In this document: positions 42,305 through 64,000 of the stretch, in pieces | Numbering within the stretch: position 1 is the stretch's first letter | How the letters are laid out: each line of letters begins with the position of its first letter | From: Pleurostoma richardsiae | Lineage: Eukaryota; Ascomycota; Sordariomycetes; Calosphaeriales; Pleurostomataceae | Direction of reading: 5' to 3' | DNA: 64,000 bases | NCBI GenBank assembly: GCA_030052745.1 | Contig: JANBVO010000009.1 | Location: 682,001-746,000, forward strand | Translations under genes and position numbers: made by a program | The notes under the pieces: model-generated | Databases searched by the model: none | Told to the model about the DNA's origin: nothing | Seen by the model: only the letters and a program-made list of their open reading frames with translations

Positions 42305-45057
42305 TTATGACCCGGCCGCCCCATAGCTTGTACACGGTGCGGTGCCGGTCGTGCTGCTGTCAGCATGCTGGCCTCCATGGATGGATAGCCTTGACCACAA
42401 GTCGTCGTCCATCAGTGCTTGGTCCACTAGAGCGGTCCAAGTCTCGGTGCCACTAGGGTTACCGTCGAGGTCGCTGAAGTTGCCGAATGGCGCAAATGCG
42501 AATCCCGGAGATGGTACCATTGGGCCCCAGAGCTGGCTTGGGTTCCAAGCATTGGCGAACGCCGTCACAGGCGTTTGAGGCATCACGCCTCTGCCGAGAA
42601 CTGGCCCTTGGTGGGTCCCTGCCGACCTGGCTGCGGCATCTAACGACTGCGAGCTCTCGGCCAGATTTGCGGAGCTGCTGGATTCTGACATGGGGACTTT
42701 GCTCGGTGACTCGAGCGATAGACACCCGCCCGGCCCCTGTACGACTATCTTGTCTGACGCGGCGGTCTCATCGCCGTCGTCAGATATGTCCTTGGCCAAG
42801 TGGCTCGCATAGTTGCGGAGCCAGTCCTCCTGCCCGGCCGACGCACCATTCTCCGGCACAGCCTCTACGCCGTCTTGAGCTTGCTCCCTAGACTCAGACG
42901 TATCTAACTGCTCATCCTGCATCAAAGCACCCGACCTGTGGTCGTTTTCAGCCAGTAATTTAGGCCACAACGTGACGAATCCCGGTTCTTCAATGCCGAC
43001 AAACCGGCTGAAGTAACTACCGAACGCCTCCTCAAGGGTGTCAGATTCGTGCTTCATTGGCGCATTGGGATCATGTATCCGAAAAAGCGTTTCAATCTGG
43101 AGGGCCAAACATGATACATTAGTAAAGGTTTTGGTTTCTCTAAGAAGCAAACAGACACAAGGTGGTGCGGCAATGAAAGGGCAGGGGGAAGTTACCCAAT
43201 CATGAGCAGGTGCATAGAAGTGCTCGACCGCCTTCAACACAGTAAAAGTGAACCTCAGGTTTTCTAGAATGATCTCATCGTACGGCCTTGAGGCTCTGTG
43301 CAGCTGGTTTATGAGAACGGTAATGCTCTGCATGCATGAGAAGCCCATCCATGGCGCCAACTGGCGAGTCTGTCAGTATTAGGCATGTTACGGCCAAGCA
43401 ACTAGGATTCGTCGACTCATACCAAGAAGAATTCCCCGTTTGCCACAATCTCCTTGCAAATGGTGCATATCGCTGCTGCGCTTGCCTCGCAGCTGTGGAT
43501 ATTCTCTTGTAAGAAAAGGACTGGGGCCCCCGGGAAGTGAAGGCTCCTGACAGTGGCATGCCAGTCCGCATTCGGATCTCTGCGTCTCTCAGGGATAGGC
43601 AGAAACGTCCGCCCAAGCACAATGGTGCAGCAATGCCACGCGAGCGTTGACATTGCGGTGTCTACGCTGTCGCTAATGCAGTGATCGGAAGGATCTGCGT
43701 CAGCACAGTAGGTGAACGGGCGTCGGATGAGGCGCAACTGGAGTTCTTTCCGCAGAGCCTGGAAGTCGGAATCTGGCTTCCACGGATCTGGCTTCTGTTG
43801 TGGAAGCGGTCGCAAGCAGAATTGCTGGATCCGGACAAGGAGGCACAGCATTTGTAAAAACTGAGGCGAGTTATTACCCCCAGAGGCATCTGGGCATGTT
43901 TCCGAGACACGATCAAGCCCCATTACACCCCTCTTGAGCAAGCTTGGCTGGGAAATACTACAGCAGCATTCCATGATTCTGAGGTAATGGTCTGCGTCTC
44001 TCAGAATCTGAGGATCTGAGGCAGGTCGGTCGTTGGCCGTTCCTGCTAGATCGATAAGGCTCCGTGCTATTGCTGCAGTGCGGTGCGTGGTCAGTAATCG
44101 TGGCGGCCAGCGAGGACGCAACTGAGTTTGAGCATACCCATGTCAGTCCAAGAGCGAGCCCCATTGCCTTTGCTAGCTCCATACTCGACAAGTACGCAGT
44201 AGGTCTGAATATGTTCGAACCCGCCTCCACCGGTACCCGTCAAGTCCGTCTCTGCTCTTGCACGGGCTTCGAACTGCTCCTCGAGAGCTGCTCGGCAGCT
44301 ACCCTGAGTAGCCTTGTGGACAGAGAACCTCACGACACATGCGCATATCGCGTATACCAGTCCTCGCGGACACGCGCCAGAGCAGATTCGCTGGATGAGA
44401 TGCGAAGGCGACAGCAGTGTTTTCACCAGGTACGTTTCCCGGGTCCATAGCAGTCCGATAAGATGGCACACCAACTGCATATGGCTGAAATCATGGCTGA
44501 GGATGTGCGGCAAGCGATTAGCTCATGCGCTGCGATACTCGGGAAAACATCGTCGTTGCACTTGCCGCCTTGTCGCACGCCCGCGGGACTTACTCTGTAG
44601 CCGCGCCATTCCCCCCGAATAGGATTATTTCTAGGCCCTGCTGCCAGATCTCAAACGGCGGCATCTCATTGATCTCGAGCCGGTCGTCTTCCGATTCTGA
44701 GGAATCGGAGAGCAGCTCGACTGCCGGGATCTCCTCCGCCGCGCTGGCGTTGCGAGGCGGGGCCGGAGCCAGGTCCCGGGTCGCCTTCTCGGCGGGCTGC
44801 CGGCGCCGTGGTCCTCGGCGACCGCGGCCTTTCTCATCGAACGTGCAGGCGCGGCCACTTACGCTGCAGAGATCACAGGGCTCCCTTCCGCTGCACTTGA
44901 CCTGCGGTTTGTTAGTAGGCGAACGCTGACAGGCTCCATGTTTGCGCACCCGTCTCTTGCGGCACGCGTCGCACGCAAGTGTGACTTTTCTCCTCAGGGG
45001 CCCGAGCACCGGGGGTTGCCTCTGCGGTTGTGGCACAGCTCGCGTGGCATCCGCCAT
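42305..45057 (-). CDS. Zn2Cys6 transcription factor, candidate regulator of the amine/homogentisate cluster, 792 aa
   Basis: Six exons: 45057-44950, 44901-44594, 44484-44138, 44072-43423, 43369-43196, 43096-42305. The cluster CDACRKRR joins V-K-C-S-G-R-E-P-C-D-L-C-S-V-S-G-R-A-C across a 48 bp intron with a CTAAC branch site, giving six normally spaced cysteines. The middle homology region appears as LVYAICACVVRFS, then W-T-D-M-G / M-A-I-A-R-S-L across intron 3, the last part of the canonical fungal TF domain. A long acidic, Ser-rich C-terminus (after ~residue 590) may be the activation region. The 48 and 99 bp introns (1 and 5) are multiples of three without stops. The exon 2/3 acceptor (44485) is the least certain; here the start of the regulatory domain is weakly conserved. 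It is divergent from the amine oxidase gene. Confidence 0.82.
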
Positions 45058-45570
45058 AGTACGCGCCGCCGCAATGCAATGGTGGTGAAGCCTGTGATGG
45101 ACGGTAGTTACTCTCACAGGCAGAGTGGAACAATCTGGGCGCGACGAATCGCGGGATCTTCCGGCACTTGTTCCACTTAATAACTAGCAACCGCACTTGC
45201 ACTCGACGAAGGGGCGCCTTGTTGGGGGAGCCGTATCTTTTGGCCGCGTCTGGCCGGGGCTAGATTACTGTCACTATCGCAAAGCGCTCTCTTTCGCCCA
45301 TTGGTCAAGTTATTCCGGAATCTTGTAGTTTGTCCTTGGTCCGCGACTGTGACCATCCGTCTCTCCAGGTGATCGGCCTCGGGTGCAGGGCCCCAGTTGT
45401 ACGCGATGGATAGCGCAGGGCCGTATCCTCAAGGGGTTTCGGCTGGCAAGCATAAATCCTCAACTGCATTGATTCGATGACCACTTGGGCAGCGTCGAGC
45501 TCAACGAACCCAACCCTCCAGCCAATCAGCTGCAGAGATCACGCAGTCTGTACATCAGGACTTCGTAGGC
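45058..45570. promoter_or_regulatory. Bidirectional promoter: regulator gene and amine oxidase
   Basis: 513 bases between two divergent starts. Contains a perfect 10-base palindrome ATTCCGGAAT (45312-45321), i.e. inverted CCG/CGG triplets of the type Zn2Cys6 dimers bind, plus CCAAT boxes in both orientations (about 45299-45304 and 45518-45524). Confidence 0.5.
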
Positions 45571-47291
45571 ATGCTTTCCAAGGACGGCGCAACTTGGACT
45601 CCTTCGGCAGGCCTCCGGCACGGCCTGCCGACGATCGGTGTCGTTGAGCCCCCCAGCTTGAACGCGGCTTCAGGTGACGACAAGATTTACGATGCCATCG
45701 TCATCGGGGCTGGGTACGCAGGGTTGACGGCTACCAGAGACCTGGCTACCCAGGGTGAGATTGAAATCCTATTGAGCATTGAGAGCCTTGTGGCACCTAC
45801 TGACAGAGCCAAGGGAAGAAGACGCTTCTTCTCGAAGGCCGGGACCGACTCGGAGGCCGAACATGGCATGCCACTATCAATGGCTTCAACTACGAACTGG
45901 GCGGCACGTGGATCCATTGGCACATGCCGCACATCTATCGAGAGGTTTCACTTTACGGCTTGCAGGACGACTGGACTGTCACTCAGATCCCCGGCTCAAA
46001 GGAAGACTACACCACCCTCAGCAGTTACGGGGCCCAGAGAAAGCTGTCGAAGGACGAGGAAGTCAGCATCGTCAGCCGCGTCTGGCGCCTTTTCTGCAAC
46101 GTTGACGGAGACGACCTCCGACAGGCCTGGAAATATCCTTTCGGCACCAAGCAAAGCCAGAAACTCGCTGAGTGGGACACATGGTCCTGCAAGGACCGCC
46201 TGGACCAGATCAGGCGCCAGCTGAGCGTCGAAGAGCTCGGAGCTCTGTAAGCCCGCCCTACATTCTATATTACCCTAGTGGGCATTTATACTAATTCTAA
46301 CGCAACTACAGAGAGTCTTTCTTGCAACAGATGGGCGGTTCGTCCCTCAAGAAGATGGGATTTCTCAACGCGCTGCACTGGTGGGTGCTGGGATCCCATA
46401 CACCCACCGGATTGAACGACATTGCCCTGCACACCCGCCTGACCAGCGGCAACAGCACTCTTCATCGTCTTATGTTCGATCACGCGGTCTCCACGGGGAA
46501 TCTTTCCTACAGGTTCCAGTCTCCCGTGGCCAGTGTCAAGGACGCTGGGGGGATTGTCGCCGTGACGACTCGAGACGGGGTGACCTACAAAGCAAAGAAC
46601 ATAATTTGCACAGTTCCACTCAATGTCCTTTCATCTATCGAGTTTTCGCCAGAGCTCCCCCAAGATAAACAAAGCGCTATGGCCGAGGGCTCGGTCAACA
46701 AATGTAACAAGGTCCATGTTGATCTGAACGACCCGGACTGGATATCCTGGGCGGCACTAGGCGCTCCGGGTAAAGGTCTAGTCTCTGCCTTTGGAGATGG
46801 TCTCACGCCGGCCGATAATTCCCACCTCGTCGCCTTCGGACCAGATCCCGACAGCTCTAACGGCATCCCGCTCGGCGATCCGGGCAAGATCCTAGATGCC
46901 ATGCGAGACCTCCTTCCCAAGGAGAAGGTCGACGAAGTCATCTTCAACCGAATCGTCAGTAGCCCAGAGACACGTGGCGGCAGATCAGTGCTAACCAGCT
47001 CCTGACCAGGTCTACCATGATTGGAATGCAGATGAGTTCTCAAAGGGGACTTGGTGCTACCTCCCTCCTGGAACCACCACCAAGAGCCTTGCTGCCCTTC
47101 AGCGCCCGCATGGGAATGTGCTGTTTGCGAGCGCAGACTTTTCGGACGGGTGGCGTGGTTGGATAGATGGTGCCGTACAGATTGGAACGAAGGTGGCAAA
47201 GGAGGTTGTTGATGTTCAGGCAAAGCAACAGGGCGGATCGAAAGTCAATGGTTCGAAAGTCAATGGTACGATCGAAGTTGACCATAACTAA
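45571..47291 (+). CDS. FAD-dependent (mono)amine oxidase, 513 aa
   Basis: Exons 45571-45754, 45814-46246, 46312-46954 and 47010-47291 (introns 59, 65, 55 bp). Dinucleotide-binding start YDAIVIGAGYAGLTATRDL, then across intron 1 T-Q-G-K-K-T-L-L-L-E-G-R-D-R-L-G-G-R-T-W, followed by YELGGTWIHWHMPHIYRE. The body has ICTVPLNVLSSIEFSPELP, and the C-terminal FAD contact is FSDGWRGWIDGAVQIGTK. These match fungal MAO-N-like enzymes, which oxidise a primary amine to an aldehyde with release of ammonia and hydrogen peroxide. There is no C-terminal SKL peroxisome signal; the tail has a short duplication (two S-K-V-N-G units). With the aldehyde dehydrogenase, HGD and FAH nearby, an arylethylamine such as tyramine is a reasonable substrate guess. 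Confidence 0.9.
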
Positions 47292-47755: not shown

Positions 47756-49808
47756 CTAGACGCGGATCTCGGTGGCTTGTGCATACCGGGATGGCTGACC
47801 CTCCGTGTTCTTTTCGACCTCGTCCGCCGGCGCCTCAGCATCAATGATTTCCAAAGCGCCCTGATAATTCTTCTTCCCATAGAAGAACCACCCCAAAACC
47901 GAGAAAATTATGATAGCACCAATGAGAGTCGAAGCGTAATTCCTAGACGCTGTTAGTGTCGCCCAACAACACGACTGGGGATGCGACTTGCATATTACTA
48001 GCTGTGACGGGACGGTAGACTGGAAACGACATGAATACGATCATGAAGCACCCAAACACCAGACCTAAGGCATTGACAAAAGGTGTAAAATAACCCAGAT
48101 GGAAAGGTCCCCGTTCCAAAGGCAGATTCCGTCGAGCGTAGAACAGATTCAGCGCGAGGGGTATGACGTAGGAAATCTGAAGCGCGACCAGGACACCGGC
48201 CATGATGCCGTAGAAAGCAGTCGTGTTCCAAATGTAGATCATGTAGATGATTACGGATGGAGGGATCATGATCAAGTTCACGACGAAGTTGAGATTCCCT
48301 TTCTCGTCGACTCGACCAAGCCACGCGGGAAGGCCGCCGTCTCTCGCCATTGACCACAAGGAGCGGGATGCCGCGCCCCAGAGATCGAAGCCTGCGGCAA
48401 AGGCAACGGAGGTGCTGAGACCATTTACGAAGATTGCCAAGGGCACACTTCCGGTGGCGTCGATGAACATCTGAGTGAAGGGACTCATGAGCCCAATGGG
48501 TGAGGCCAGGACCTGGGCAAGGTCTTGGCTGCAGAAGACCACCGCGATCACGAGCGGGAAAGTGGAAATAGCACTACTGCTTGCCTGAAGGATCACTACT
48601 CGAAGAGCAGGGCATGTCAGCATTTTCTGCCAAAGTTCAGGGCGCACCAGGCAATGACTTACTTGCTCGAGGCACTGCGACGTTCGCCTTTGGTATCTCC
48701 TCGGCAAAATGGGCGGCAGCGTCTATAGAGAAGAAGGCATAGAGCGCTGAGAGAAGGCTAATGGACCAGGAAACAAAATCGTTGTCCCATCCCGTGTAGC
48801 TGTGGAAATCGGTGAAGACGTACGTTGCGTCATGCTTGTTCTTTGTCAATCCGGTCAGGAGGCCGATAGTAATTAAGTAGCCGACAACATGTACCACGAG
48901 AACTAGAGGGATCCAGTGGTAAGTTTCCAACCCGCAGATATTGCCATGTGTCAAGAACGACGGCGATGACGCATGGCTGCACTCACTAAAGGAATTCATG
49001 TAGTGCAAGAATTTGACATAGAAGATATTCACGGCCACCCAACAAGCCAAGCAGGCCACATTGATCTAGATGACGATTAGCGGAGTCGAAGTACACAATG
49101 GCATGTCTTTTCAGATGATTCAATACTCACCAGGAATGCATGCCATGTCAACGGCGCATAGTTACTGGCAGAAGCCGCGTAGGACTGGATCTGAACTGCG
49201 ACACCCATGCTGCAAGACAACGAACCGAGCCAGAGACCCGCAATACTGATCCACGCAGTAAACCAGCTCTTGCAGACAAAGTCAGCGTTTGCTCTGCCCA
49301 TTGCTCTGCCGGAGTCGCGCATAGAGAGACTCACCACAAGCCTAGCATACTTCCTAGGGCTTAGGTGGGATGCCCAGACATATTGTGCCCCAGCAGAAGG
49401 CCACATGCTTGAGAGAAGAATGGTTAGAGGCTGCTCTGGAAGTCCGCAACCGGACCTTGTCTATCTTACCTGGCGAATTCTCCGAGTGTCGCAGCCATGC
49501 ATGTTATGCCGACAGACACGAACACCCAGCCCCAAACCAGTCCCACGGCGCCGCCGCCAACGATGCCCTGACCTATCGAAGCCACCCATCCCTCCCACTA
49601 CGATAGAGTTGCCGAGTTAGTATTTCCTTCTCGATCCAGAGCCACGGCGGGAAGTGGAGAGACTCACGGCCCCAGATGTACAGATGGCAATGCCTAGTGC
49701 TGTCCAGAAGTTGAACTGTTTCTTGACTTTTCGCTCCGTAGCAGCCTCCGTGGCAGCCTCCGTGACCGAAGTCGTCGGTGCTCGAGGGATTGGGCTTTCT
49801 TTGCCCAT
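47756..49808 (-). CDS. APC-superfamily amino acid/amine permease, 557 aa
   Basis: Seven exons: 49808-49668, 49597-49470, 49407-49335, 49268-49131, 49065-48663, 48595-47992 and 47942-47756; frames are consistent through all six introns. Twelve-helix APC layout: NFWTALGIAICTSGA-WEGWVASIGQGIVGGGAVGL, TCMAATLGEFASMWPSAGAQ across intron 2, SWFTAWISIAGLWLG, and VPRAMILQASSSAISTFPL. The end is VTASNMNYASTLIGAIIIF then a Lys/Glu-rich cytosolic tail. This is the GABA/choline/amino-acid permease group of fungi. The final intron (49 bp) requires a GC donor (GCAAGT) to give N-M-N-Y-A-S. In context it may import an aromatic amine or amino acid; specificity cannot be read from sequence. Confidence 0.9.
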
Positions 49809-50903
49809 TTCCGAGCGAACTCGTCTATGTCCGGAGGTATAAATGATGGCCTACCTTCAAAATTGGCTGGTTGTCTGCAGATTGTGAGAGCTTTTGTGCC
49901 GGTTCTCACGTTCAGAGGAAGCGAGTGGTTGGGACAGGGTGAGTCTGGGGCGGTTCTCTTAAAGTCGACTAGGGATCGGGGAGCCCGGGGAGATAGGTAT
50001 GTGCTTTTATCTTGATGTATTCTAACTGTCCGGGTCACCGGGCTAGAATTACGATTTGGAAGTTGCCACAGCACAGGGTTGTAGTCATGGAAATGGGGTG
50101 GCTCGCACTATCTCGGCCAACGTTGAGAGGGCTTAAGTTTGCACCGGAGTTCGCAATAGATAGGGAATAATTACGGTGTTGGTTAGCGCGGCACGTTCCC
50201 CAGACACCTCTGGCTCCACAGCGATAGGAGAGAGATAACTTAGTGGGCTCGGTGCAGCGGATGGGGCGTCAGAGTGATTGATACAGCGCTGTTGACTTAA
50301 TTCGCCTCGCCGTGATAACCAACACCTCCTAGATTCAGCCTTCCACTGATAAAGAAATGTATAGAGAAGTCTGACTCTTTTCATACCGCCGCCGTCGACC
50401 GAGCTTATGAATTCCTGGCCCCCTTCTGGTGATAACACTTGGCCTGCAGACCCAATCTCGAGTGTCCCTAACGGTAGACCGCTTTCATAGCTGTAAGATG
50501 GTATCGTCCAAGTCAAGTCTCATTAGAATGCTTCCTGGGATGCTCATCCCGGGGTGCTCTGCTTCAATGGGTAGTGTCCCAGTGGCAGCCCCCCGGATTA
50601 ACTACACCTATCACCGTCCAGCTCGAGCGATAGTGAATAGGCTTGGCCTCTCAGAAGAAGTTCCTTATGCCACCGAATGGACTCCTTTCAACAACAGCGC
50701 CGATGACCCTAGCCCTCTATCTAGCCCAGATGCAAGAGGCATGGCACGAGTTTCGTGCCTTAACGTGTGAGATGTGTTAGTGCACCAAGTTCACCTGTGG
50801 GAAACAGTACACAGGAGCCATTGAAACCACTCAGGAAATCAGACATCAACACGGGTATTCAGTACGACATGCGATCGTGGTGTCATTTTGTTATATTGGG
50901 CTT
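49809..50903. promoter_or_regulatory. Intergenic: permease promoter and FAD hydroxylase 3' flank
   Basis: About 1.1 kb. Short overlapping frames on both strands (50.1-50.8 kb) lack conserved features. Upstream sequence of the leftward permease should lie at the left end. Confidence 0.4.
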
Positions 50904-52330
50904 TTATCTAACAGCGACAGGATGCCTCTTGGTGACATTCCTACTATCCAGCCCATAGTCACCACCTGCCGGGAGGGCAAGTTCCTGAATTGTCCCTTGA
51001 CGTCCACTCTTGACGTCCTGGGCCAAGTGGTCAAAATGCTGCTCCGCGTTCTCCGCCTCATCATGCTCGAGGACCCAAGCAGGCCGCGGCAAGTTCAGGA
51101 TATGGGGATTCTTCAGAATATCGTCACCGTCCCAATCCACATTATGGTACCCGTCTCTCGTCGAAATTGAAGCCATATGCGTGACGTGGGATCTGTTGAA
51201 ACGTATCCTCTCAAACACACGAAGCGCCAAAGGTACGTCACCCTTGGAACGATGCAGGGCAACGGCTACGGCGACGCCGTCCTCCATGGCCTGTGAGCCT
51301 CCTTGTGCGGACGTAGGGAGGTGACAATGCGCTGCATCACCGATGACCGCGATCCGCGCTGACTTGCTGAGCCACGTGTCAATGGGCTCCCTCCAGACTA
51401 GCTTGTAGTCGACCAGATTCTCAGGGGGAGTGTTTCTGACGATCTCGTGCAGCTTCGGCTCGAAGTTGCCCTCCTTTAGACACTGAAGGACATCTTGAAT
51501 GTTGCCCTTGAACGACCAAGACTCCCCAATGTCCGCGTCATCCTACATGGCGATTAGTCCTCTCTTTCCCGGGGCTTCGGGGGCACTGATGCGATATAGC
51601 TAACCTTGTGCGTGAGGACCCAGCCGAGGTCCTTGCCTTTGTTCCAAGTGTAAACAATCATGTGAAGGTCCTTTGCGACCCAGAGTTTAGTGTCGTCCAC
51701 TGTGGGATCACAGAACTCCTTCAAAAGAGGGTTCCTCTGGTGCTCTTCAGTCAGGGTGTAGTAAGCCCTGAAGATTGCATAGCCACTGTTGACCTTGTTG
51801 TCTGGTAGGCCCAGAACCTGCTCCCGAGCAATTGAGCGAGGGCCGTCGGCCGCGAGAACTACATCGCCGGTATAAGTCTTACCACTGGCGGTAATCACGC
51901 TTGGTCTGTCCCCGTCCACGTACTGGACGACCTTGTCGCCGAACTTGAACTCTACTCCGATCGACTGTGCGTAGTCGACAACCACTTCGTGCATCTGGCC
52001 GCGGTGTCCCGCATACTGCCTCCAGAAGTGATGAGGCTCCAGGATCCAATCCTCCTGCCAGATCAAGGTGCCATCGGATTTATAGTATTTGAACTTGTCG
52101 CCCTGGTTGATGCACTGCTTCATGAGTTCCCGGCCAACGCTGCCATTGTCCCACTTCTCGATAATGCGACCGCCGTTGGGGAAGAAATCGATGATGTCTC
52201 CGAAAGCAGCGCTGGTTGGGTAGGTCTCAATGATGGTTGCGTTCATCCCCCGGGTTCGGCATTCGATAGCCGCGGTGAGGCCGCCGAACCCGCCTCCCAC
52301 AATGATCACGCTAAGTCCGTCGCTGGTCAT
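50904..52330 (-). CDS. FAD-dependent aromatic monooxygenase (salicylate-hydroxylase-like), 454 aa
   Basis: Exons 52330-51605 and 51542-50904; the 62 bp intron joins VLTHK to DDADIGESWSF. Group A flavoprotein hydroxylase signatures in order: GxGxxG in SVIIVGGGFGGLTAAIECR, the DG motif in VVLAADGPRSIAREQVLG, and the GD motif in RIAVIGDAAHCHLPTSAQGG. One-component enzymes of this class use NAD(P)H and oxygen to hydroxylate a phenolic or aromatic acid. Length is typical, no membrane anchor. Its setting beside HGD and FAH suggests it supplies homogentisate, for example from 4-hydroxyphenylacetate (1-hydroxylation with side-chain shift) or from a hydroxyphenylacetate isomer. This is inference; the sequence alone only supports an aromatic hydroxylase. 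Confidence 0.9.
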
Positions 52331-53082: not shown

Positions 53083-54443
53083 CTAGAATTTCTTGATTGG
53101 GCTTACTCCAATGCCCATAATCCTGACAGCGATAAAACAAAGCAACGCAACCACGTAGGCTGAACCGGCAAACATGATCAGGCCCGAGTATTCACCATTC
53201 GACGACTCAAGAATACGGCCGCCAAGAGGGACACCGATCAACGAACTAGCGAGGCGCGGTCAGTACAGGTGTTTGGAGACCCGGCTGAAGGTGCTGGAGC
53301 TACTTACCCGATGGAGGCAATGCTGTAGACTGCTGTGAACGTCTTGCCGTAGTCTTTGGTGTCACAGAGTTGTGCGATGCATACCGGCACCAGGCTGATC
53401 CCGCTGCCGCTGCCTATACCGAAGACGACGGCAAACGCAAATAACGCACCAGTGCTGGTTCCGGCCTGTTTCCAAATGCCGAAGATGGCCACCAATGACA
53501 GGAACAGAGCGCAGACCTGGGCGTTGAATCTGCCGAGTTTGTCCCCAATATAGCCCGGGAGCCACCTCCCGATAAACGAACCGACGTTCAAGAGAGTCAC
53601 GACGTTGTAGGCGGCCTGAGACGATGCTCCATTTGCAACGGCGTACGATGCAATGTAAGTCATTGGGATAAACAGACCGAGCTCCACGAAGAACGCCCCA
53701 GCCGTGAGGACGGATAGTTGCGGGTTCAGCAGAAGTCTCGGGTTGGGCAAGATGCCCTTCCACGAGAACGCCCTTTGAAGACGACCTCTCAGCAGCAGGC
53801 ACCCAGCCGCAAGGCATGGAAGCATGATCAGTGTCGTTACTCTCATTGTCCATGCGAATCCTATCCTGGGAAGTAACTTCCCAAGGATAAGAGGAAATAC
53901 GATGCCACCCACGCTTCCTCCGGAGATCGCACAGCCGGTGGCGATGCCGCGCCGGCGAAGGAACCAGTGCTGAATGGTCCCCACAGAGGCTGTGAAGAGC
54001 AGGCACGTCGAGAGACTGCCAACCAGTCCAAGGCAGAGGAGGAAGTGCCAGTACACCTTGCAGATGCTGAGCAACAGGTATGTTGCAATCAGGAGAACAG
54101 ATCCGACCAGCAGGAGTGGAAGAGGGCCCTTGACGTCAAATACGGGCCCGAGGGGAATCCCGGCAAAGAAGCTCATGAAGTTGTAAAAGCCAAAGATCCA
54201 GCCTATCCGTCCAGGCGACTCATTCGCTAGTTGGTGACCAGAGATCCAGGTCTCGTATGCACCGATAGAGTTCATCAATGATAAGCCAGCGAAGAACATG
54301 CAGAAGCTCCCAAGCACCGTCAGCCATGCTCTCTTCCCCCCGTCAGGATAGTCGACGACCTCATCCGACGCCGTCGCGGTCGTCAAGATCGTGCCATCGT
54401 CAGTGAGGACGAGCTTGCTTTCCTCGGTCGCCGGCTTGCTCAT
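53083..54443 (-). CDS. MFS monocarboxylate-type transporter, 432 aa
   Basis: Exons 54443-53308 and 53245-53083; the 62 bp intron joins SIASIG to SLIGVPLGGRILE. The N-terminal cytosolic stretch ends in DYPDGGKRAWLTVLGSFCMF, the D-G-G / W signature of the monocarboxylate porter family (fungal Mch-like). Twelve hydrophobic segments follow, with LRRRGIATGCAISGGSVGGIVFP at helices 4-5 and GDKLGRFNAQ in the helix 8/9 loop. Short central loop and length are normal for the family. In this cluster it may carry an aromatic acid such as a hydroxyphenylacetate across the plasma membrane, or export an intermediate. Family assignment is strong, cargo inferred. Confidence 0.9.
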
Positions 54444-54927: not shown

Positions 54928-55406
54928 ATGGTATTCGAGTTCAAGAGCGAGCGGGAGCTTTACCGTATTCCCAAGCTTCAGGGGGCACCCCCTCCGGTTC
55001 ATTTTGGTACGCCCTTGAACAAATGTATCGCTCGATTCTCGGGACACTGACCCTTGTTGCTGCTAGTGGACGTGTTTTCCAGCGCGAAGCAGGATGTCGC
55101 CAATCCTTTGACAGGGTCGTACTTCCTGCTCGAGTATGCGGAGCAGCCAGAACCTGCTCCTCCGTATGACTACGACGAGTCTGGGGTTGTCCTCAAAGGT
55201 AACACGCACCACCCCCCTGGGAGGCAATCCACAGTAGACCGCTGACAACGTACTCTTCAGGAATCCTGAACATCGAGGACGAAAAAGGAAACAAGGCCTC
55301 GCTGCAAGAAGGCGACACCTTCTTCATTCACCGTGGCAGTAACATTACCTTTTCGTCGCCGAGGTTCGCTGTGGCATACAAGGTTGCTTCTCGCGCAAGC
55401 CTTTGA
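54928..55406 (+). CDS. Small cupin (EutQ/cupin_3-like), 118 aa
   Basis: Three exons: 54928-55006, 55067-55198 and 55261-55406 (introns 60 and 62 bp). The joined protein reads MVFEFKSERELYRIPKLQG, then P-V-H-F-V-D-V-F-S-S-A, GSYFLLEYAEQPEPAPPYDY, DESGVVLKGILNIED, ASLQEGDTFFIHRGSNITF and a closing strand VAYKVASR. This is a single beta-barrel cupin resembling ethanolamine-utilisation EutQ-type proteins. Metal-binding His residues of classical cupins are mostly absent, only one near FFIHRG. Could be a binding, isomerase or accessory protein of the cluster; catalytic role not shown. The short exons are supported by three consistent reading-frame joins. Confidence 0.8.
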
Positions 55407-55801: not shown

Positions 55802-57218
55802 TCAGGAACGCTGTATAGCCGGGAGAATTCTTGTCACGCATTCGCCGAATCCCACCAAGCCAGAAACCTCATCTCCAGCCAATCCCCTAATGATAACAGT
55901 ATCGTTATCCTGCACGAATTTTCTCTCTCCACCACCAGTGAGAGGGATAACCTGCTTGCCTCCCTGCGACTGCTCCAGGAAACTTCCGTAACTACCGCGT
56001 TCAGTCCCTGAGATTGTGCCGGAGCCGAAAAGGTCGCCCACACGTAGATTGCAGCCCCCAACAGAGTGGTGAGCAATCATCTGCGGCCAAGACCAAACCA
56101 GGTACTTGGAGTTAGTGCGGCTAATGGTCGTGACGTCTCCAGCGGAAGCTATCATGTGTCAGCGCTGAACTCCTGTGCGAACAGGAATCGTAACTATAGA
56201 ATGACACACACCCACACACACACACACAGAGAGAGAGAGTGAGAGAGAGAGAATACTGACTTTTCAATTCTACCTCCAATCGGATATCATGCACGCCGGC
56301 CTGTCGCGATTCGCTGAGATAGGGCAGTAGCTCAATCGGGTTTTCCAAGCCAGCAGCTCGGAAAGGTTCCAGCGCGTCAGCCAAAACCACCCAGGGGCTG
56401 ATGGTAGTTCCGAAGTTTTTGGCGTTGAATGGCCCCAGAGGGACATACTCCCAGACCTGGATGTCGCGGGCACTCCAGTCGTTCATCAAGACGTAACCGA
56501 AAATGTGCTGCTCTGCTTCTTGGACAGGAACAGGCTGGCCGAGCCCGTTCTCCTTGGTCACGAACATGCCGAGTTCCAACTCGATATCGAGTCGTCTGGA
56601 CGGGGAGAAGATTGGAACTTTGGTCTCGGCGGCGGGGTTCTCGATGATCTGGCCCCACGGCCTGTGGAGGGGCGTTCCGGAGACCACAACGGAACTCGCC
56701 CTCCCGTGGTAGGCGACTGGGATGTGATTGTAGTTCGGGTTCAGAGCGTTCTGTGCGCCACGGAAAAGAGTCCCCACGTTGCTAGCATGGTTGCGGCCGG
56801 CGAAGAAGTCGGTGTAGTCGCCGATGGTCAGGGGAAGGTGGTTCTGAACTTCGCGCTGCGGGATGAGCGCGGCTGCCTGTAGAGGCTTGTTGTCCTTCAA
56901 GATTTCTGGATGGCGAGTGTTCTCAGACAGTATGTCCTGGAGGTACTGTCTCACTGCTCGGTGGGTAGGACGACCCAGCGCTGCGAAGGCATTCAACGTA
57001 GGAGATGCGAAGGCCCGGGCCACATCATCCTTCCGCTTACCCAGCCCGCCGAAGCCACCTTGTTTGGCAAAGGCCAGCAGGTCGAGAGCATGCTCGCCGA
57101 TAGCAATGGCAGGGCGGTGTTCAGGCGTGTTTGCCGTTGATATGATGCCGAACGGGATGTTGGCGATGGAGAAGGAAGACCCGGTGGGCACCGAGACCCA
57201 AGATTTCAAAGAGGCCAT
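55802..57218 (-). CDS. fahA: Fumarylacetoacetase, 434 aa
   Basis: Hydrolyses fumarylacetoacetate to fumarate and acetoacetate, last step of homogentisate breakdown, cytosolic. Exons 57218-56261 and about 56148-55802; intron ~112 bp containing a dinucleotide microsatellite. N-terminal SH3-like part MASLKSWVSVPTGSSFSIAN and NIPFGIISTANTPEHRPAIAIG. Catalytic region: IGDYTDFFAGRNHASNVGTLFRG (with the active His and metal Asp), HGRASSVVVSGT, DIELELGMFV (metal Glu pair) and FGYVLMNDWSARDIQVWEYVPLGPF. The join E-V-E-L-K-T-S-A-G-D-V leads to NGCNLRPG-like GGCNLRVGDLFGSGTISG. All key residues present; length normal. Start at MASLK matches homologues; the codons upstream are not conserved and begin with TTG. 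Divergent from the HGD gene. Confidence 0.94.
56204..56253. repeat. (CA)n/(GA)n compound microsatellite inside the FAH intron
   Basis: About 50 bases of CA then GA repeats on the + strand. On the transcribed strand it is a long TC then TG tract just after the 5' splice site. Exact ends are approximate. Confidence 0.85.
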
Positions 57219-57842
57219 CACTGGCTCAAGAGAGGAGACTTCGAGTTTCCACCTGCAAAGCCATCGAGCGGACACGTGAGCTGCCGAGGCATCTGAAGAG
57301 GAGAACAACACATAATAACAGTTCCTGGTCGAGTGCAGAGAATGAGGTCATGCCGTCTGCCGCCGTGCGATCACGTCCACAGTAGGACACGGAGCGCTGT
57401 GGGCCAGGCCTGGGCTCGGAAATTTGGCTGATTGGCCCCCCCGGATCCCGCCGGAATCCCCCTGCGGGCGGGCTGCGGCTAGTTGATCACCTACCTACCT
57501 ATCGCTTGCTTACCCTACAATCGTAGCAGTGTATGCCCCTGTTTCTAGTACGCTGTGAGAGCCGGCACAGCGAGTCAAAGGAGTCCCCGGCTGGGCACGC
57601 TTGGGGTGATTTGTTTCCTGGGGCAATGGATGCGACAGGGGATGCACTGTGTTCTCGAAGCTCACAGCATTCATGTGAAAGAGCTGATGGTACATTTTCG
57701 GGCGGCGACGGGAGGTAAATATCGCACATAAGAGCGACTAAGTGCCCTTCTGATCCTGCACTCAGCTGCCTTCCATGTGATTGATATACCAATAACGTCT
57801 AGGCACAGCCAGGATTCACTACGCACGAGCACTTCCATAAGG
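57219..57842. promoter_or_regulatory. Bidirectional promoter: FAH and HGD
   Basis: 624 bases between divergent starts. Contains GC-rich CCGGAATC (57451-57458), an 8-mer also present in the palindrome of the amine oxidase promoter, and a nearby second CGGAT. Also an ATTGG (reverse CCAAT) near 57431-57435. Confidence 0.5.
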
Positions 57843-59241
57843 ATGCCCGTCACCAACTTCAAGACGCCGGAGAAGTACCAATACTTGAATGGCTTCGGGT
57901 CGTACCATGAGTCTGTATCATCGCTCACCATCTCGATTCTTGCTGACCGTCTTCAGGTCCGAAGCCATTCCGGGCGCCCTGCCAGTTGGTGCCAACTCCC
58001 CCCAGAAGCCGCCATATGGACTTTACGCCGAGAAGCTCTCCGGCACCGCCTTCACGGCACCGCGCTCGGAAAATCTGCAGTCGTGGCTCTACCGCATCCT
58101 CCCCTCGGCTGCTCATTCGACCTTCGAACGGTACGAGACAATCGAACTTGGGTCGTGTGGTCTTTCCACGAGTATCCCCAACGCGATGCTCCATCAGATA
58201 CCCAACCAGCTGCGTTGGGATCCCTTCGACCTTGAGGAGGACGTGGACTGGATCCATGGTCTCAAGCTGCTCGGCGGCGCGGGCTCACCAGTCCTCAAGA
58301 CCGGCCTGAGCATATTCATTTTCGCCGCTGGAAAAGATATGGCTGCCAACGCGGCCTTCTATTCTTCGGACGGAGAGTTCCTCATCGTGCTGCAGCACGG
58401 GCTTTTGGATCTCCAGACCGAGCTGGGCAGACTGCTCGTCAGACCTAACGAAATTGCGGTGATTCCCAGAGGCATTCGCTATAGGGTCACGCTCCCCGAG
58501 GGACCCTCTCGAGGGTATATTCTCGAGCTCAACCAGGGCCACTTTGTTCTCCCGGAGTTGGGCCCAATCGGCTCGAATTGTCTTGCCAACCCGCGCGACT
58601 TCCAGGCACCTGTTGCGTCGTTCGATGAGGATACGTCTTCAGACTGGACTATTGTCAATAAGTTCAATGGTACCCTGTTCGCTGCCAAACAGGGCCATAC
58701 GCCTTTCGATGTTGTAGGCTGGCATGGCCGTTACTACCCTTACAAGTACGATTTGGGCCGGTTTTCCGTTATTGGAAGCACATCATTCGATCACCCAGAC
58801 CCGTCTATTTATACTGTTCTTACGGCCCCGTCGGACCACCCTGGCACTGCCGTTGCCGACTTTGTCATCTTCCCACCAAGATGGCTTGTTCAGGAGGATA
58901 CATTCCGTCCGCCTTGGTATCATCGTAATACTATGTCCGAGTTTATGGGGCTTGTCTGCGGCAGTTATGACGCTAAGGAGGGAGGCGGGTTTCGTCCCGC
59001 GGGTGCGAGCTTGCACAATATCATGTCGGCCCACGGGCCAGATGCGGACACGTTCGAGAAGGCAAGCAACGGTGAGCTGACGCCCGTCAAGGTGGGCGAA
59101 GGGAGCATGGCGTTTATGTTCGAGAGCAGCTTTATGATCGGGGTTACAGACTGGGCATTAGGTACGTGCAAGAAGCTTCAGGACAAGTACAGCGAGCACA
59201 GCTGGTCCCGCCTCAAGCCTCATTTTAAGCGGCATTCCTAA
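57843..59241 (+). CDS. hmgA: Homogentisate 1,2-dioxygenase, 450 aa
   Basis: Non-haem Fe(II) enzyme opening the homogentisate ring to maleylacetoacetate. Exon 1 57843-57910 and exon 2 57957-59241; the 46 bp intron joins [10 protein letters not shown] to [16 protein letters not shown], the classic HGD N-terminus. Further signatures: [51 protein letters not shown]-type [14 protein letters not shown], and the metal site [15 protein letters not shown] followed by [20 protein letters not shown] (two His, one Glu). Length matches the family (about 445). Its presence beside FAH but without 4-hydroxyphenylpyruvate dioxygenase or maleylacetoacetate isomerase in the window suggests a specialised copy. 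Substrate assignment is strong because all metal ligands and neighbouring residues are kept. Confidence 0.95.
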
Positions 59242-59314: not shown

Positions 59315-60918
59315 TCACTTCAAAACATGAACCTTCACAGTTTTCGTCACGGTCCAGTTTTCGAGTGCCTCGTGTCCCATATCCCTACCAAACCCACTTT
59401 GCTTGACGCCACCAAAAGGTGTGTTTGCGTGAACGAGGCCCCAGCAGTTGACCGTCACCGTGCCCGTCTCCATAGCCTCGCTTACCCTCATGGCCCGGCT
59501 GATATCGTTTGTGAAGACGGCAGAGTTCAATCCGTAATTCGAGTCGTTCGCTTTCTCGATGACCTCCTGCTCGCTAGTGAAGGGAGCGATACTGGCGAAT
59601 GGCCCAAAGACCTCTTCCCGCATGATGGCATTATCCTGCTTAACATCTGCAAAGGCAGTATTGGCGACGAAATGGCCGTCCCCGGGGAGCCTTTCTCCAC
59701 CATGGAGCAGCCTAGCACCTGAGTGCTTACCCTTTTCCACGTACGACAATATCCTAGTCAGTTGATCTTTGCTAGCAACCGCGCCTTTTGTGGTCTCCGG
59801 GAGAAGCGGATCTCCGTGTATGGCATCTCGGCTCCGTTTGCTGAACTCTTCGAGAAACCTCTCGTAGATGCTGTCTTGGACGTAGATGCGACTTCCGGCA
59901 GCGCAAACCTGGCCGTTGCTCGCGGTGATACCCAGAGTCGTCCAGAAGAGAGCGTTTTCCCAGTCGGCATCCTCGAAGATAATGCTTGGCCCCTTACCTC
60001 CCAGTTCCAGAGTCACCTTCTTCAGGTTAGACAGAGCTGCGGCCTGAAGGACGCGGCGACCGGTGGCCGTGCTCCCGGTGAAAGATATCTTCTTGACGTC
60101 TACGTGCTCTGCAAGGGCTTGGCCAGTCACGCTGCCCAGACCTGTGATCACGTTGATTACTCCGGGAGGGAAACCGGCCTCCCTCACGAGCTCTGCAATC
60201 TTCTGGCCCCAGAGCGGCGTGGGTTCCGGCGTCTTGACGACTAGGGTGTTGCCAGCCGCGATGGCGGGGGCCAGCTTCCAAAAGAAGATCATCCTAGGTA
60301 GACTACAATCAGCACAGAACGAGACGATCTGAATCCAGATCCTGTCTCGGCCGGCTCTTACAAGCTGTTCCAAGGGACAATGGCGGCGCAGACACCGATG
60401 GGCTCTCGCCTGGTGTAGCCAAGCCCTTCGGGGATCGACATCGTTGCGCCGTCGAGTTTATCAGCCCAGCCCGCGAAGTAGCGCAGATTCTCCACGGACT
60501 GAGCTACATGGAGACTCAGTGAGTCTCGGTAGAGCACGCCGCCCTCGAGAGCCTCTAGTGAAGCCAATTGCGTTCCGTCACGCTCAACGAGATCAGCAAG
60601 TTTTTGAAGAAGTGCCCGCCTGGTAGTCGGGCTCGCTTTCTTCCAGGTCCCAAAGGCCTTCTTGGAGGAGCTGACGGCGCGTTCGACATCCTCTTTCTGC
60701 GCAGCGGAAACCGTGGCTAGATGAGCAGCTGTGCTCGGATTCTCAACATCGAGGGTGGCGCCAGTTGTCGCCTGGACAAATTCGTTGTCGATGAACAGCT
60801 GAGTATGGACTGGGCATTGGGTTAGCACATTAACATGTCTCTCCTCACAGATTCGGCCGGCGGCTGACAAACCAGTGATCTCGAGGCCCTCAACCCCACG
60901 CAGGGTGACAGATGCCAT
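59315..60918 (-). CDS. NAD(P)-dependent aldehyde dehydrogenase, 498 aa
   Basis: Exons 60918-60849, 60809-60362 and 60293-59315. Intron 1 is only 39 bp but has a perfect GCTAAC branch site and yields G-R-I-F-H-T-Q-L-F-I-D-N-E-F-V, a normal ALDH start. Intron 2 (68 bp) gives I-V-P-W-N-S-L-M-I-F-F-W-K; another acceptor at 60303 would add three residues. Active-site features: PWN (oxyanion Asn), FTGSTATGRRV (cofactor loop), LELGGKGPSIIFEDAD (Glu), GQVCAAGSRIYV (nucleophilic Cys) and EEVFGPFASIAPF. No targeting signal; expected cytosolic. In this cluster it would oxidise the arylacetaldehyde made by the amine oxidase to an arylacetate. Specificity is inferred from context. Confidence 0.9.
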
Positions 60919-61575
60919 GTTGATGCGATACGTTACAAGTTCCTGCAGATATTCGAAGAGACTCGAGGTCCGAGAATCAACGCCGTGCTTGTGGTTCCTA
61001 CTTGTCTGAGAGCGATCTCAAACCGTCGGTCTTCTCTTCCAAAGGCTGCAGACTGCCGAGGTTCAAGTGGGACAGGCAGCTACTGGTGAAGAGAGAGTCT
61101 TCAACCAAACAAGTGAACCCATTGTCTGCGCGGCCATCTAGCGGCGCATGCGTGTTGGAGAAGAGGAAGATACTCCGAGTGGAGTGGGGAGAGCCTAGCC
61201 TCGCTGTCGGAACAATTTCTGAGACGCGCGGTACAACGTCGTGGAGCTCCTCATCTGGAAGAAATGGCCGAATAGGGGGGCACTGGCAAGCGTTTACGCC
61301 ACGTTAACCAGGTCGGCGGGAAACGCGCGGAGGTGCAGGGATTCCTGCATCGGTGCCAGGACGTCACACCCAGTAGGGGAAAGGGGCTAGGAGCCACGAC
61401 CGGCATAGGGAACAGCAAAGCCTTTCTATATTCACTACTGCTGACCTGGGCAAACTTGCCGTGGATCCTCATACTGCGTCGCTACCGGCAGTCGTGCAGC
61501 CCCCTCACTCAGATAATCAACCGCCCGCCCACCACCACATGTTCACACAGATATTTTCACTCCCGCACCACAGTC
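60919..61575. promoter_or_regulatory. Bidirectional promoter: aldehyde dehydrogenase and Dabb protein
   Basis: 657 bases between divergent starts. Contains the inverted repeat TGCAGG-GATT-CCTGCA at 61334-61349. Confidence 0.45.
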
Positions 61576-61960
61576 ATGGCATCAGGCAAGCGCACTAATC
61601 GTATCACACTGTTTAAAATCCCCGACAAGGACAATGTCCATAAACTGTTGGAAATATACAGAGGGATGCCTCAGAAGGCAGTCAAAGCAAGTGACCTCGG
61701 CTGCAGCTTGACAGGACATGACAACTAATACTTGGCATCACCAGGATGGAAAACCCTACATCCTCGCCGTGACAGCCGGCGAAGCAGCACCGGACCACCG
61801 GGCACAAGGGTTTACCGTGGCCGTGGTGTCGGTATTTGCATGCAAGGAGGACATGGTGTACTACGACAACCAATGCGCGGCCCACGCTGAGCTGAAGTCA
61901 TTTGCAAAGACTGTACATCATGGCGTAATGATGGTGTATTTTGAAGACATTTTAGAGTGA
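61576..61960 (+). CDS. Dabb/stress-responsive A/B barrel protein, 108 aa
   Basis: Exons 61576-61686 and 61745-61960. The 58 bp intron must use a GC donor (GCAAGT) so that A-V-K joins D-G-K-P-Y-I-L-A-V. Protein: MASGKRTNRITLFKIPDKDN, then EIYRGMPQKAVKDGKPYILA, RAQGFTVAVVSVFACKEDM and YYDNQCAAHAELK. This is a dimeric alpha+beta barrel of the Dabb family, which includes small dimeric enzymes (cyclases, isomerase-like) and stress proteins. Conserved YYD and H (in QCAAHAELK) are kept. Its role in the cluster is unknown; it could handle a reactive intermediate. Its stop codon is 22 bases from that of the convergent RidA-family gene. Confidence 0.85.
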
Positions 61961-61982
61961 GGCGAAGGGCAGAAATTTGCAT

Positions 61983-62479
61983 TCAGTTTGGTAGCAGTGC
62001 TTTTACCGTGATCTCAATATGTACATCTGGATGGACTAAAGCCTTGACCTGCACTCCAGTCCAGGTTGGCTTTGTTTGCTTGAGAAACTTCCGGGCAATA
62101 GGAATGACCACGTCACTAATCCCCTGTCCATCTTTCGCTACCTCGAATGTTTGGATCTAGATCCGTGATTAATCGTGGGTTAAGACAGTTTCCAGGGGAC
62201 AGACTGCCGCACCTCGTAAACGTATTCCCAAGCATCATCCCCAAGACCGGCAGCTTTGAGACTGCGTGCGACATGCTCAAAGGCCTCCGTCACCTCTTCC
62301 TCGATGTTCTCGGATACAGTGTCGTCTTCCCGAATACCAAGCTGCCCCCCTACCATGATAGTTTGCACACCAGCAGGCAGGACTAGGGCATGAGAAATGC
62401 CGAAGGCTTCCGCAGGGCCCTCTCCACCGGGCCAATTGTAGAATCGGACGCCATGGGCTGCAAGCTTTGATTCACCCAT
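61983..62479 (-). CDS. RidA/YjgF/YER057c-family protein without the usual catalytic Arg, 146 aa
   Basis: Exons 62479-62213 and 62156-61983; the 56 bp intron joins W-E-Y-V-Y-E to I-Q-T-F-E-V. Start MGESKLAAHGVRFYNWPG. RidA-fold features: ISHALVLPAGVQTIMVGGQL, EEVTEAFEHVARSLKAAGLG, and the C-terminal segment TWTGVQVKALVHPDVHIEIT. In true imine/enamine deaminases the corresponding stretch is P-A-R-S-x-V-E-V, with Arg as the catalytic residue; here P-T-W-T-G-V-Q-V puts Trp at that place. So this belongs to an Arg-lacking Rid subgroup, probably not a standard iminohydrolase. Trimeric cytosolic protein by family. Function in the cluster unknown. Confidence 0.88.
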
Positions 62480-63402
62480 TGCTTCGAATGCTAGGCAATG
62501 GTTGATTCTGGAGGAGTCCAATGACAACAAAACAATGAAATGAAGGGCCAATCTAAAAGGGGGAGTTGGCTGGCTGTTCTGCACTACTCGTGTTGATACC
62601 CAGACTGCTCTATCTTATCTTCACTTTATTCCCCCGGAACCTGTTGCGTCCTTCGTCATCTGTGATAAATCTGTTGATAGTTTCTCACCACGTCAATCTG
62701 GTGCGAGCGGGTAAATATCCCATTGGCTCAGATTTTCCACGGTTGAGAGTAGCTTATCCTACTAGCTGTACACACTACTTTCAAGGTGTTGAGCGACTCG
62801 CCCCCAGCATCCCTCTCCTTCCGGCCTCTTACTGCAACTTGACCCAATAGGGCAAGACATCTATTCACGGCACTCTGTCTTTATCTCACGGCATTTGCAT
62901 ATTGGGGGTCTCTTGTAACCTCGAAGCTGCTCTTGTCAAGCTTGTTTGCATTCGGAAAGTAAGGAAGAGACTATTATACTACAGCGAGCCAGAATCTGGG
63001 GAAACCAGATCCACAGTCGATCCTTAGAGATAGGAGAGGTCTCGGCTGTCTACCCACTGACCAGGGGTGATATCACGACCTTTGATTGGTCTGACCAGCT
63101 ACTGTAGTGTAGTCTTGCCGTACATCCCGAAGATATATCGCTATGTTGAGGTGCAGTGCCATTGTCGACTCTCCCACCAAGGGCATGCAGTCGCTATCAT
63201 CACAGCTGATAGACATGGGTGACGAGGAAAGCTGACGAAAGTTACTAAACACCCGCCCCCGCCCCCCTCGTGGGTGATTCCCCAACTCGCACTTCGCACG
63301 TTCTTCAAACAATAGCCACCTCTGAGTCTCTGACAGAACCATCGACTCTGCCCGAAAGGCCTCACTCTAGATCTCTGACTGTGCAAGAACGAATCAGACA
63401 AG
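62480..63402. promoter_or_regulatory. Divergent promoter region: RidA-family gene and second permease
   Basis: About 920 bases; no gene accepted. Short T/C-rich stretches precede the permease start. Confidence 0.4.
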
Positions 63403-64000
63403 ATGGGTGACGCTGGAGACGCTGTGAAGAATGTGTCAACAATCACCGACGATGATGCTCTTGAATTGGAGCATTTGGGCGTCGTGCCCTCGAAGATGAA
63501 GCGGAACTTCAACGTGTGGTCCTTGCTCTTCATGTCCTTCTGTACAAGTGTTACCTGGGAAGCAATTTCATCCTCGATTGCTCAGGCTCTCACATCTGGG
63601 GGGAGTTCTAGCCTTGTCTGGGGATATGTTGCCTCGGCACTGGGTGCCTTTCTCATCGTGCTTTGCATGGCAGAATACGCCAGCATGGTCCCCACGGCAG
63701 GCGGCCAGTATCACTACGTGGCCGAGCTCTCACCGTTGAGTGTGAGGAGGGTTTTCTCCTGGTATGCTGGTTGGATCACGATGATCGGCTGGCTTCTATG
63801 CGCAACTGCGGGCATCTTCGCTACTGCAATGCAAATACAGTCATGGATCATCCTCTTCGCCGAAACTTACGTCTATGAGCGATGGCACACCAGTTTGGTA
63901 ATTCAACCCGTTTTCTGTTGGGCTTTCCCCAAGGCTCATTGTGCTAACGACTCGATATTTCCAGCTCGTCATCGGCCTCACTACCTACTTCACTTTGTTC
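63403..64000 (+). CDS. APC-superfamily amino acid permease, 3' end beyond the right edge
   Basis: Exon 1 63403-63897, intron 67 bp (GTAATT..TTCCAG), exon 2 from 63965 to beyond 64000. The visible 177 residues have a ~40-residue cytosolic N-terminus (MGDAGDAVKNVSTITDDD...) and then MKRNFNVWSLLFMSFCTSVT-WEAISSSIAQALTSGG. Next is LIVLCMAEYASMVPTAGGQYHYVAELSP, the hallmark of fungal APC amino-acid/choline/GABA permeases. At least four membrane segments are present, all intact. A second transporter of the same superfamily flanking the cluster suggests import of two related substrates or an unrelated neighbour; the left permease is much diverged from it. Partial only because of the window end. Confidence 0.9.
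   Translation, partial: MGDAGDAVKNVSTITDDDALELEHLGVVPSKMKRNFNVWSLLFMSFCTSVTWEAISSSIAQALTSGGSSSLVWGYVASALGAFLIVLCMAEYASMVPTAGGQYHYVAELSPLSVRRVFSWYAGWITMIGWLLCATAGIFATAMQIQSWIILFAETYVYERWHTSLVIQPVFCWAFPKAHCANDSIFPARHRPHYLLHFV

What the first reader, a model, noticed from the sequence alone, without database searches (positions are those of the whole stretch)
42305..64000. Candidate aromatic-amine to homogentisate catabolic gene cluster
In one 21 kb block lie a Zn2Cys6 regulator, amine oxidase, aldehyde dehydrogenase, FAD aromatic hydroxylase, homogentisate dioxygenase, fumarylacetoacetase, two APC permeases, an MFS carboxylate carrier and three small proteins (cupin, Dabb, RidA-like). The enzymes order into a path: arylethylamine, arylacetaldehyde, arylacetate, homogentisate, maleylacetoacetate, fumarate plus acetoacetate. 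Enzyme identities are seen in sequence; the path and substrate (for example tyramine) are inference. I know of HGD/FAH/MAAI clusters in fungi but not of this combination.
Basis: partly seen in the sequence, partly recalled or inferred. Interest (0 to 1): 0.85.

Follow-up and report, generated by a model that had tools for sequence, protein, structure and literature searches.

The report
Fungal amine-to-homogentisate breakdown gene cluster
A stretch of a fungal chromosome groups genes that appear to take up an amine, oxidise it to an aromatic acid and open its ring; it looks like a new arrangement of known breakdown enzymes, and its substrate is still unknown.

Summary
The window is from Pleurostoma richardsiae (proteins identical over full length). 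Homogentisate dioxygenase (HGD) and fumarylacetoacetase (FAH) pass curated equivalog cut-offs.

Two corrections. The cluster runs past the window: within 5.5 kb follow a cytochrome P450 and a second FAD monooxygenase (57% and 62% identical to the first, FADH1, over its two exons). And no maleylacetoacetate isomerase passes cut-off in the genome.

Conservation could only be tested indirectly, by shared contig length and locus tags. Of 26 non-window FADH1 rows at >=68% identity, 13 share a contig with a listed cluster-type amine oxidase (MAO); about 2 are expected. Only 2 of 26 do so with a listed HGD, but that list shows 120 of 8000 matches. All three genes lie on one 25.6 kb metagenome contig.

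Best reading: catabolism of an arylethylamine-type amine through an arylacetate to homogentisate. Substrate and hydroxylation route are inference. FADH1's nearest solved structures are fungal alkaloid (indole) monooxygenases, so indolic amines stay open. It is a new variant of known fungal homogentisate clusters.

The parts
42305..45057 (-). Zn2Cys6 regulator (several exons; inner exon borders not modelled)
   Evidence: C6 motif CDACRKRRVKCSGREPCDLCSVSGRAC after removing one intron
45571..47291 (+). MAO-N-like flavin amine oxidase, 513 aa, 4 exons
   Evidence: Amino_oxidase 176 bits; MAO-N 2vvl E=2.9e-117; 100% identical to deposited protein
47756..49900 (-). APC permease 1 (start approximate)
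   Evidence: AA_permease_2, TIGR00907 subfamily below cut-off
50904..52330 (-). FAD monooxygenase FADH1, 454 aa, 2 exons
   Evidence: FAD_binding_3; 100% identical to deposited protein; model pLDDT 89
53083..54443 (-). MFS carrier, monocarboxylate type
   Evidence: MFS_1 85 bits; weak TIGR00892 and L-lactate MFS matches, below cut-off
54928..55406 (+). EutQ-like cupin, 118 aa, 3 exons
   Evidence: EutQ 23.5 bits, cut-off 21
55802..57218 (-). Fumarylacetoacetase, 434 aa, 2 exons
   Evidence: TIGR01266 equivalog over cut-off
57843..59241 (+). Homogentisate 1,2-dioxygenase, 450 aa, 2 exons
   Evidence: TIGR01015 equivalog over cut-off; 8 of 8 checked catalytic residues kept
59315..60918 (-). Aldehyde dehydrogenase (at least 2 exons)
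   Evidence: Aldedh 404 and 121 bits on its two ORFs; start read
61576..61961 (+). Dabb protein, about 106 aa (donor site uncertain)
   Evidence: PF07876 45.9 bits, cut-off 25
61983..62479 (-). RidA-like protein, 149 aa, 2 exons
   Evidence: PF01042 39.9 bits, cut-off 27.3
63404..64000 (+). APC permease 2, runs on to C126:747121; beyond the window follow a P450 (C126:747656-749449) and FADH2 (C126:749964-751439)
   Evidence: AA_permease_2; continuation and next genes in L010

Best explanation
A catabolic gene cluster that imports an aromatic amine (APC permeases), oxidises it with a MAO-N-like amine oxidase to an imine/aldehyde (RidA perhaps speeding imine hydrolysis), oxidises the aldehyde to an arylacetate (ALDH), hydroxylates the ring to homogentisate with the P450 and/or the two FAD monooxygenases, opens the ring with HGD, and splits the product with FAH to fumarate and acetoacetate; a Zn2Cys6 factor probably controls it. 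Shown here: gene content, intact frames, enzyme families, HGD residue conservation, and MAO-FADH1 linkage in other fungi. Inferred: every reaction, their order, the substrate, the transport roles and the regulation.
For: HGD and FAH pass equivalog cut-offs; HGD keeps 8 of 8 checked residues. MAO is a full-length MAO-N homologue in a clade of 41 rows (SH-aLRT 100), 23 of which share a contig with a typed FADH row, against 1 of the 14 other rows (55 of 120 listed rows used). 13 of 26 non-window FADH1 rows at >=68% identity share a contig with a listed MAO (1.98 expected); on contigs of 1 Mb or less 6 of 15 (0.13 expected). Tags are adjacent or near in Cladophialophora psammophila 04991/04992, Cylindrodendrum g124/g130 and Beauveria mimosiformis 5357/5362. 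FADH1 and HGD are two tags apart in Sporothrix eucalyptigena 009403/009401, and all three genes are on one 25,593-base metagenome contig. The genome has a second ALDH-HGD-FAH-FAD_binding_3 group on C62, where the MAO query found nothing.
Against: No expression or substrate data. HGD linkage seen in only 2 of 26 non-window FADH1 rows (truncated list). No maleylacetoacetate isomerase passes cut-off in the genome. FADH1's nearest solved relatives act on indole alkaloids, not phenylacetates (activities recalled). No shared promoter motif found. On the MAO tree the linked label is not clustered beyond shuffles (18 changes, shuffled mean 18.1). The 26 rows are not independent (several Cordyceps/Beauveria rows).
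Confidence: 0.68

Rival explanations
1. Two neighbouring but independent modules: a MAO-FADH(-P450-permease) module for using or detoxifying an amine, next to a general arylacetate module (ALDH, HGD, FAH) that is not fed by it.
For: MAO-FADH1 linkage is wide (13 of 26 non-window rows) whereas HGD linkage was seen in 2 of 26. The C62 group carries ALDH, HGD, FAH and a FAD_binding_3 protein without a MAO match.
Against: The HGD list shows only 120 of 8000 matches, so missing pairs say little. All three genes share a 25.6 kb metagenome contig, and FADH1 and HGD are two tags apart in Sporothrix. The genes interleave: HGD, FAH and ALDH lie between FADH1 and FADH2.
Confidence: 0.13
2. The substrate is an indolic amine (for example tryptamine): MAO and ALDH give indole-3-acetate, the FAD monooxygenases oxidise the indole ring, and HGD acts on a later dihydroxylated phenylacetate or a relative of it.
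Against: HGD looks like a true homogentisate enzyme, and I know of no route from indole-3-acetate to homogentisate. A shared fold does not fix the substrate.
Confidence: 0.12
3. A detoxification cluster for a plant defence compound (MAK1-like FAD monooxygenase plus a P450 of pisatin-demethylase kind), whose aromatic remnant drains through homogentisate.
For: Several close FADH1 relatives are deposited as 'MAK1-like monooxygenase'; the P450's kind is recalled from its haem region only.
Against: The deposited names rest on distant similarity; a MAO, two permeases and RidA point to an amine substrate.
Confidence: 0.05

Closest known systems
L-tyrosine degradation (TD) cluster of Aspergillus fumigatus (hppD, hmgX, hmgA, fahA, maiA, hmgR); Greene et al. 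2014, PMC3914699 (abstract, passages and section 11 read)
   Same: HGD and FAH side by side, with a regulator in the cluster
   Different: No hppD here (the only match is on C54) and no maiA match; instead MAO, ALDH, two FAD monooxygenases, a P450 and permeases
Gentisate catabolism (GC) cluster (adhG, sahG, gdoG, ctfG, sdoG, fphG); same paper
   Same: ALDH, a salicylate-hydroxylase-like FAD monooxygenase, a ring-cleaving dioxygenase, a hydrolase and a C6 factor
   Different: The dioxygenase here is an HGD, and the front end is an amine oxidase rather than a stilbene dioxygenase
[not shown]
   Same: An arylacetate is hydroxylated to homogentisate, then HGD and FAH act
   Different: Two FAD monooxygenases are in the block; whether its P450 is a CYP504 was not tested
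Bacterial mhaAB beside hmgABC (3-hydroxyphenylacetate 6-hydroxylase; PMC3053370, passages)
   Same: An FAD hydroxylase feeding homogentisate, clustered with the central pathway
   Different: MhaAB is a two-component enzyme (566 + 60 aa); the word 'amine' does not occur in that paper's main text
MAO-N of Aspergillus niger (2vvl)
   Same: Full-length homologue, E=2.9e-117; the Trp of the KGxW motif is kept
   Different: Belongs to a clade apart from the 14 other MAO-N-like rows used; the Phe of MAO-N GWRSF is Trp here

Membership tests
Homogentisate 1,2-dioxygenase (TIGR01015) | Scores over the equivalog cut-off | tested here: met
   678.2 bits, cut-off 510.75
Homogentisate 1,2-dioxygenase (TIGR01015) | Fe ligands and substrate-binding residues (human H335, E341, H371; R336, N337, Y350, K353, H365; list recalled) | tested here: met
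   8 of 8 kept in the window copy
Fumarylacetoacetase (TIGR01266) | Scores over the equivalog cut-off | tested here: met
   440.7 bits on the ORF holding the first exon, cut-off 375.3
Fungal TD (tyrosine degradation) cluster | hmgA and fahA in the cluster | tested here: met
   Adjacent at 55802-59241
Fungal TD (tyrosine degradation) cluster | hppD in the cluster | tested here: not met
   The only TIGR01263 match of the genome is at C54:88114
Fungal TD (tyrosine degradation) cluster | maiA in the cluster | tested here: not met
   No TIGR01262 match on C126; best in the genome 46.3 bits on C49, cut-off 171 (six frames, introns not modelled)
Gentisate catabolism (GC) cluster | Gentisate 1,2-dioxygenase as ring-cleaving enzyme | tested here: not met
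   The dioxygenase found is an HGD equivalog; no gentisate dioxygenase model was searched for
MAO-N-type amine oxidase | Full-length homology to MAO-N | tested here: met
   Residues 1-488 align with 2vvl 1-483, 395.5 bits
MAO-N-type amine oxidase | Oxidation of primary amines | not testable with these tools
   Needs an enzyme assay
CYP504 phenylacetate hydroxylase | P450 of family CYP504 | not tested
   No CYP504 reference was fetched; only the P450 family was shown
Salicylate 1-monooxygenase / 3-hydroxybenzoate 6-monooxygenase | Scores over the equivalog cut-off | tested here: not met
   TIGR03219 54.4 of 446.35 bits; NF006021 124.9 of 459 bits

The most novel reading that the evidence does not exclude
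A cluster-type MAO paired with an FqzB/MAK1-type FAD monooxygenase is an old, widely kept Pezizomycotina module for catabolising aromatic or indolic amines, which in some lineages (here, Sporothrix, one metagenome fungus) works with its own homogentisate dioxygenase and fumarylacetoacetase, giving a flavoprotein route from amine to homogentisate that bypasses both hppD and the CYP504 enzymes.
Probability: 0.35. Interest if true: 0.6.

Novelty: new variant of a known kind. Interest (0 to 1): 0.45.

Why it matters
If right, it gives a nearly complete, testable gene set for how filamentous fungi turn aromatic amines into central metabolites. It would assign a function to a large group of FAD monooxygenases now deposited as 'salicylate hydroxylase' or 'MAK1-like', and to a MAO-N-like clade apart from the well-studied enzyme. 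It also places homogentisate dioxygenase outside the tyrosine (hppD) context, in a genome with nine HGD-family places.

Tried and rejected
Shared promoter motif: gapped 3+3 and 4+4 patterns and CGG/CCG pairs over nine cluster promoters against dinucleotide shuffles gave nothing convincing: 3 patterns occur in 9 of 9 promoters (20 shuffles: mean 0.7, maximum 4); CGGCGG in 6 of 9 against 2.3, the best of 66 spacings tried. Null.

HGD tree (49 of 120 listed rows plus C52): the window copy falls with the metagenome cluster copy in a 24-row, mostly Sordariomycete group with support 89, not starred; Sporothrix and C62 copies fall elsewhere. It neither shows nor excludes a cluster-specific HGD clade. 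The C52 row was a raw ORF on a long branch.

MAO tree: 23 of 41 against 1 of 14, but the label is not clustered on the tree beyond shuffles.

FADH tree (63 of 120 listed rows plus FADH2): FADH2 falls in another clade than FADH1, with Thelonectria, Neonectria, Dactylonectria and Ilyonectria rows; the second FAD monooxygenases near FADH1 in Cladophialophora (04999) and Elasticomyces (020459) do not group with it, so a two-monooxygenase cluster is not shown to be ancestral.

Structure of FADH1: confident model (pLDDT 89), but fold rank does not fix the substrate.

The first neighbour search used four queries with a wrong frame (ALDH, MFS, APC1, Dabb); repeated with correct frames, which then found the C62 ALDH.

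Literature: ten searches over open-licence PMC papers; by titles and abstract beginnings no listed paper described this gene combination. Lists were cut at 10-20 rows and most subscription papers are not held, so this is no proof of absence. The Gluck-Thaler and Slot 2018 survey was seen only as a citation. W. dermatitidis (PMC4059230) and S. apiospermum (PMC5716253): passages only.

Lists end at 120 and proteins are collapsed at 90% identity, so missing pairs say little. The expectation of 1.98 assumes one MAO and a 38 Mb genome and comes mostly from one 37.5 Mb contig.

Gene order in relatives could not be read: fungal DNA is not in the searchable collections.
Full report
What the region is. 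The window is G000:C126:682001-746000 of a 39.4 Mb, 136-contig assembly. Proteins identical over full length to my spliced models are deposited from Pleurostoma richardsiae on a contig of 870,983 bases, the length of C126, so the organism is that fungus.

Gene content. From left to right in the finding: Zn2Cys6 factor (-), MAO (+), APC permease (-), FADH1 (-), MFS carrier (-), EutQ-like cupin (+), FAH (-), HGD (+), ALDH (-), Dabb (+), RidA-like (-), APC permease (+). Several neighbours are divergent pairs sharing one intergenic space. The models of MAO, FADH1, HGD, FAH, cupin, RidA and Dabb are in frame after removing short introns; the Dabb donor site and the exon borders of the permeases, ALDH and the regulator are uncertain.

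Beyond the window. The next 5.5 kb carry the rest of the second permease, a cytochrome P450 (L010:1656-3449, inner borders not modelled) and a second FAD monooxygenase, FADH2 (L010:3964-5439, 470 aa), 57% and 62% identical to FADH1 over its two exons. After that come genes without an obvious link (a DEDDh-type protein, a GH3 fragment, an NmrA and an SDR).

Central pathway. HGD scores 678.2 bits against the HmgA equivalog (cut-off 510.75) and FAH 440.7 (cut-off 375.3). HGD aligns to the human enzyme at E=6.8e-146 and keeps 8 of 8 catalytic positions checked (the residue list is recalled). The only 4-hydroxyphenylpyruvate dioxygenase match is on C54. No maleylacetoacetate isomerase passes its cut-off; the best GST-like hit has 46 of 171 bits. 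That step may be spontaneous with glutathione, done by an unrecognised enzyme, or the gene was missed because introns split it.

Front end. The amine oxidase is a full-length MAO-N homologue. In a tree of 55 of the 120 listed rows, 41 cluster-type MAOs form a clade with support 100; 23 of the 41, and 1 of the other 14, share a contig with a typed FADH row, though the label is not clustered on the tree beyond shuffles. The genome's other close MAO (C88, 39-45%) also lies near an APC permease, which fits a permease that imports amines; this is inference. RidA proteins are known imine deaminases (established knowledge), so one near an amine oxidase makes sense.

Conservation. Fungal DNA cannot be searched here, so I compared contig lengths and locus tags in protein hits. 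With one MAO in a 38 Mb genome, 1.98 of 26 would be expected, most of it from one 37.5 Mb contig; for the 15 contigs of 1 Mb or less, 6 were seen against 0.13. Rows from related Cordyceps and Beauveria species are not independent. Of the 49 less similar rows, 15 also share a contig with a MAO. The 20-row FADH1 clade (support 96) covers Sordariomycetes, Chaetothyriales and Dothideomycetes (class names recalled). The HGD list shows 120 of 8000 hits, so HGD membership elsewhere is open. Positive cases are Sporothrix eucalyptigena (tags 009401 and 009403) and a 25,593-base metagenome contig with all three genes.

HGD family in this genome. Nine places carry HGD-family genes (one search lists ten matches, two of them pieces on C76). 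Window, C62 and C52 copies keep 8 of 8 checked residues. Of the six divergent copies (43-49% identity over the aligned parts), five have Glu at H365 and none of these five has Lys at 353; C46 was not covered there (tblastn alignments). C62 carries ALDH, HGD, FAH and a distant FAD_binding_3 protein (25% to FADH1); the MAO query found nothing in that 20 kb. It is a second homogentisate group with another front end.

Known systems. TD clusters have hppD and maiA, which were not found here; GC clusters use gentisate dioxygenase (PMC3914699). Rhinocladiella mackenziei has CYP504 and HGD genes with neighbouring tags (PMC5844311). A. terreus has a homogentisate cluster and orthologues of the phenylacetate hydroxylases (PMC7842363). 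None of the passages read describes an amine oxidase with HGD. I rate this a new variant of a known kind.

Verdict. Observation confirmed and extended; interpretation partly supported. The substrate and the hydroxylating enzyme remain to be found by experiment.

Noticed in passing
G000 C2, C57, C76, C93, C77, C46 (L016-L027): Six divergent HGD-like genes (43-49% identity); five keep the Fe ligands but have Glu at H365 and no Lys at K353, and C46 was not covered there. Possibly ring-cleaving enzymes for other substrates.
   Followed up: partly
L012:6791-8419 to L013:7206 (C62): Second homogentisate group: ALDH, HGD, FAH, a Cyclase-family protein and a distant FAD_binding_3 protein, no MAO match.
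   Followed up: partly
39174-42192: Just left of the cluster: an NmrA-like protein and a second Fungal_trans_2 regulator; not clearly part of it.
   Followed up: no
2-3354 (-) and 6844-8556 (+): An NPHP3_N-type NLR-like gene with ankyrin-like repeats (repeats read by eye) and a HET-domain gene, the kind found in fungal incompatibility loci.
   Followed up: no
L028:6845-8462 and L029:474-1256 (C88): A second MAO-N-like gene (39-45% to the cluster one) near an APC permease and a Fungal_trans_2 regulator.
   Followed up: partly
whole genome G000: No maleylacetoacetate isomerase match over cut-off (best 46 of 171 bits), although HGD and FAH have several copies.
   Followed up: partly
25477-30326: A sugar transporter and a hexokinase-like gene lie close together.
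   Followed up: no
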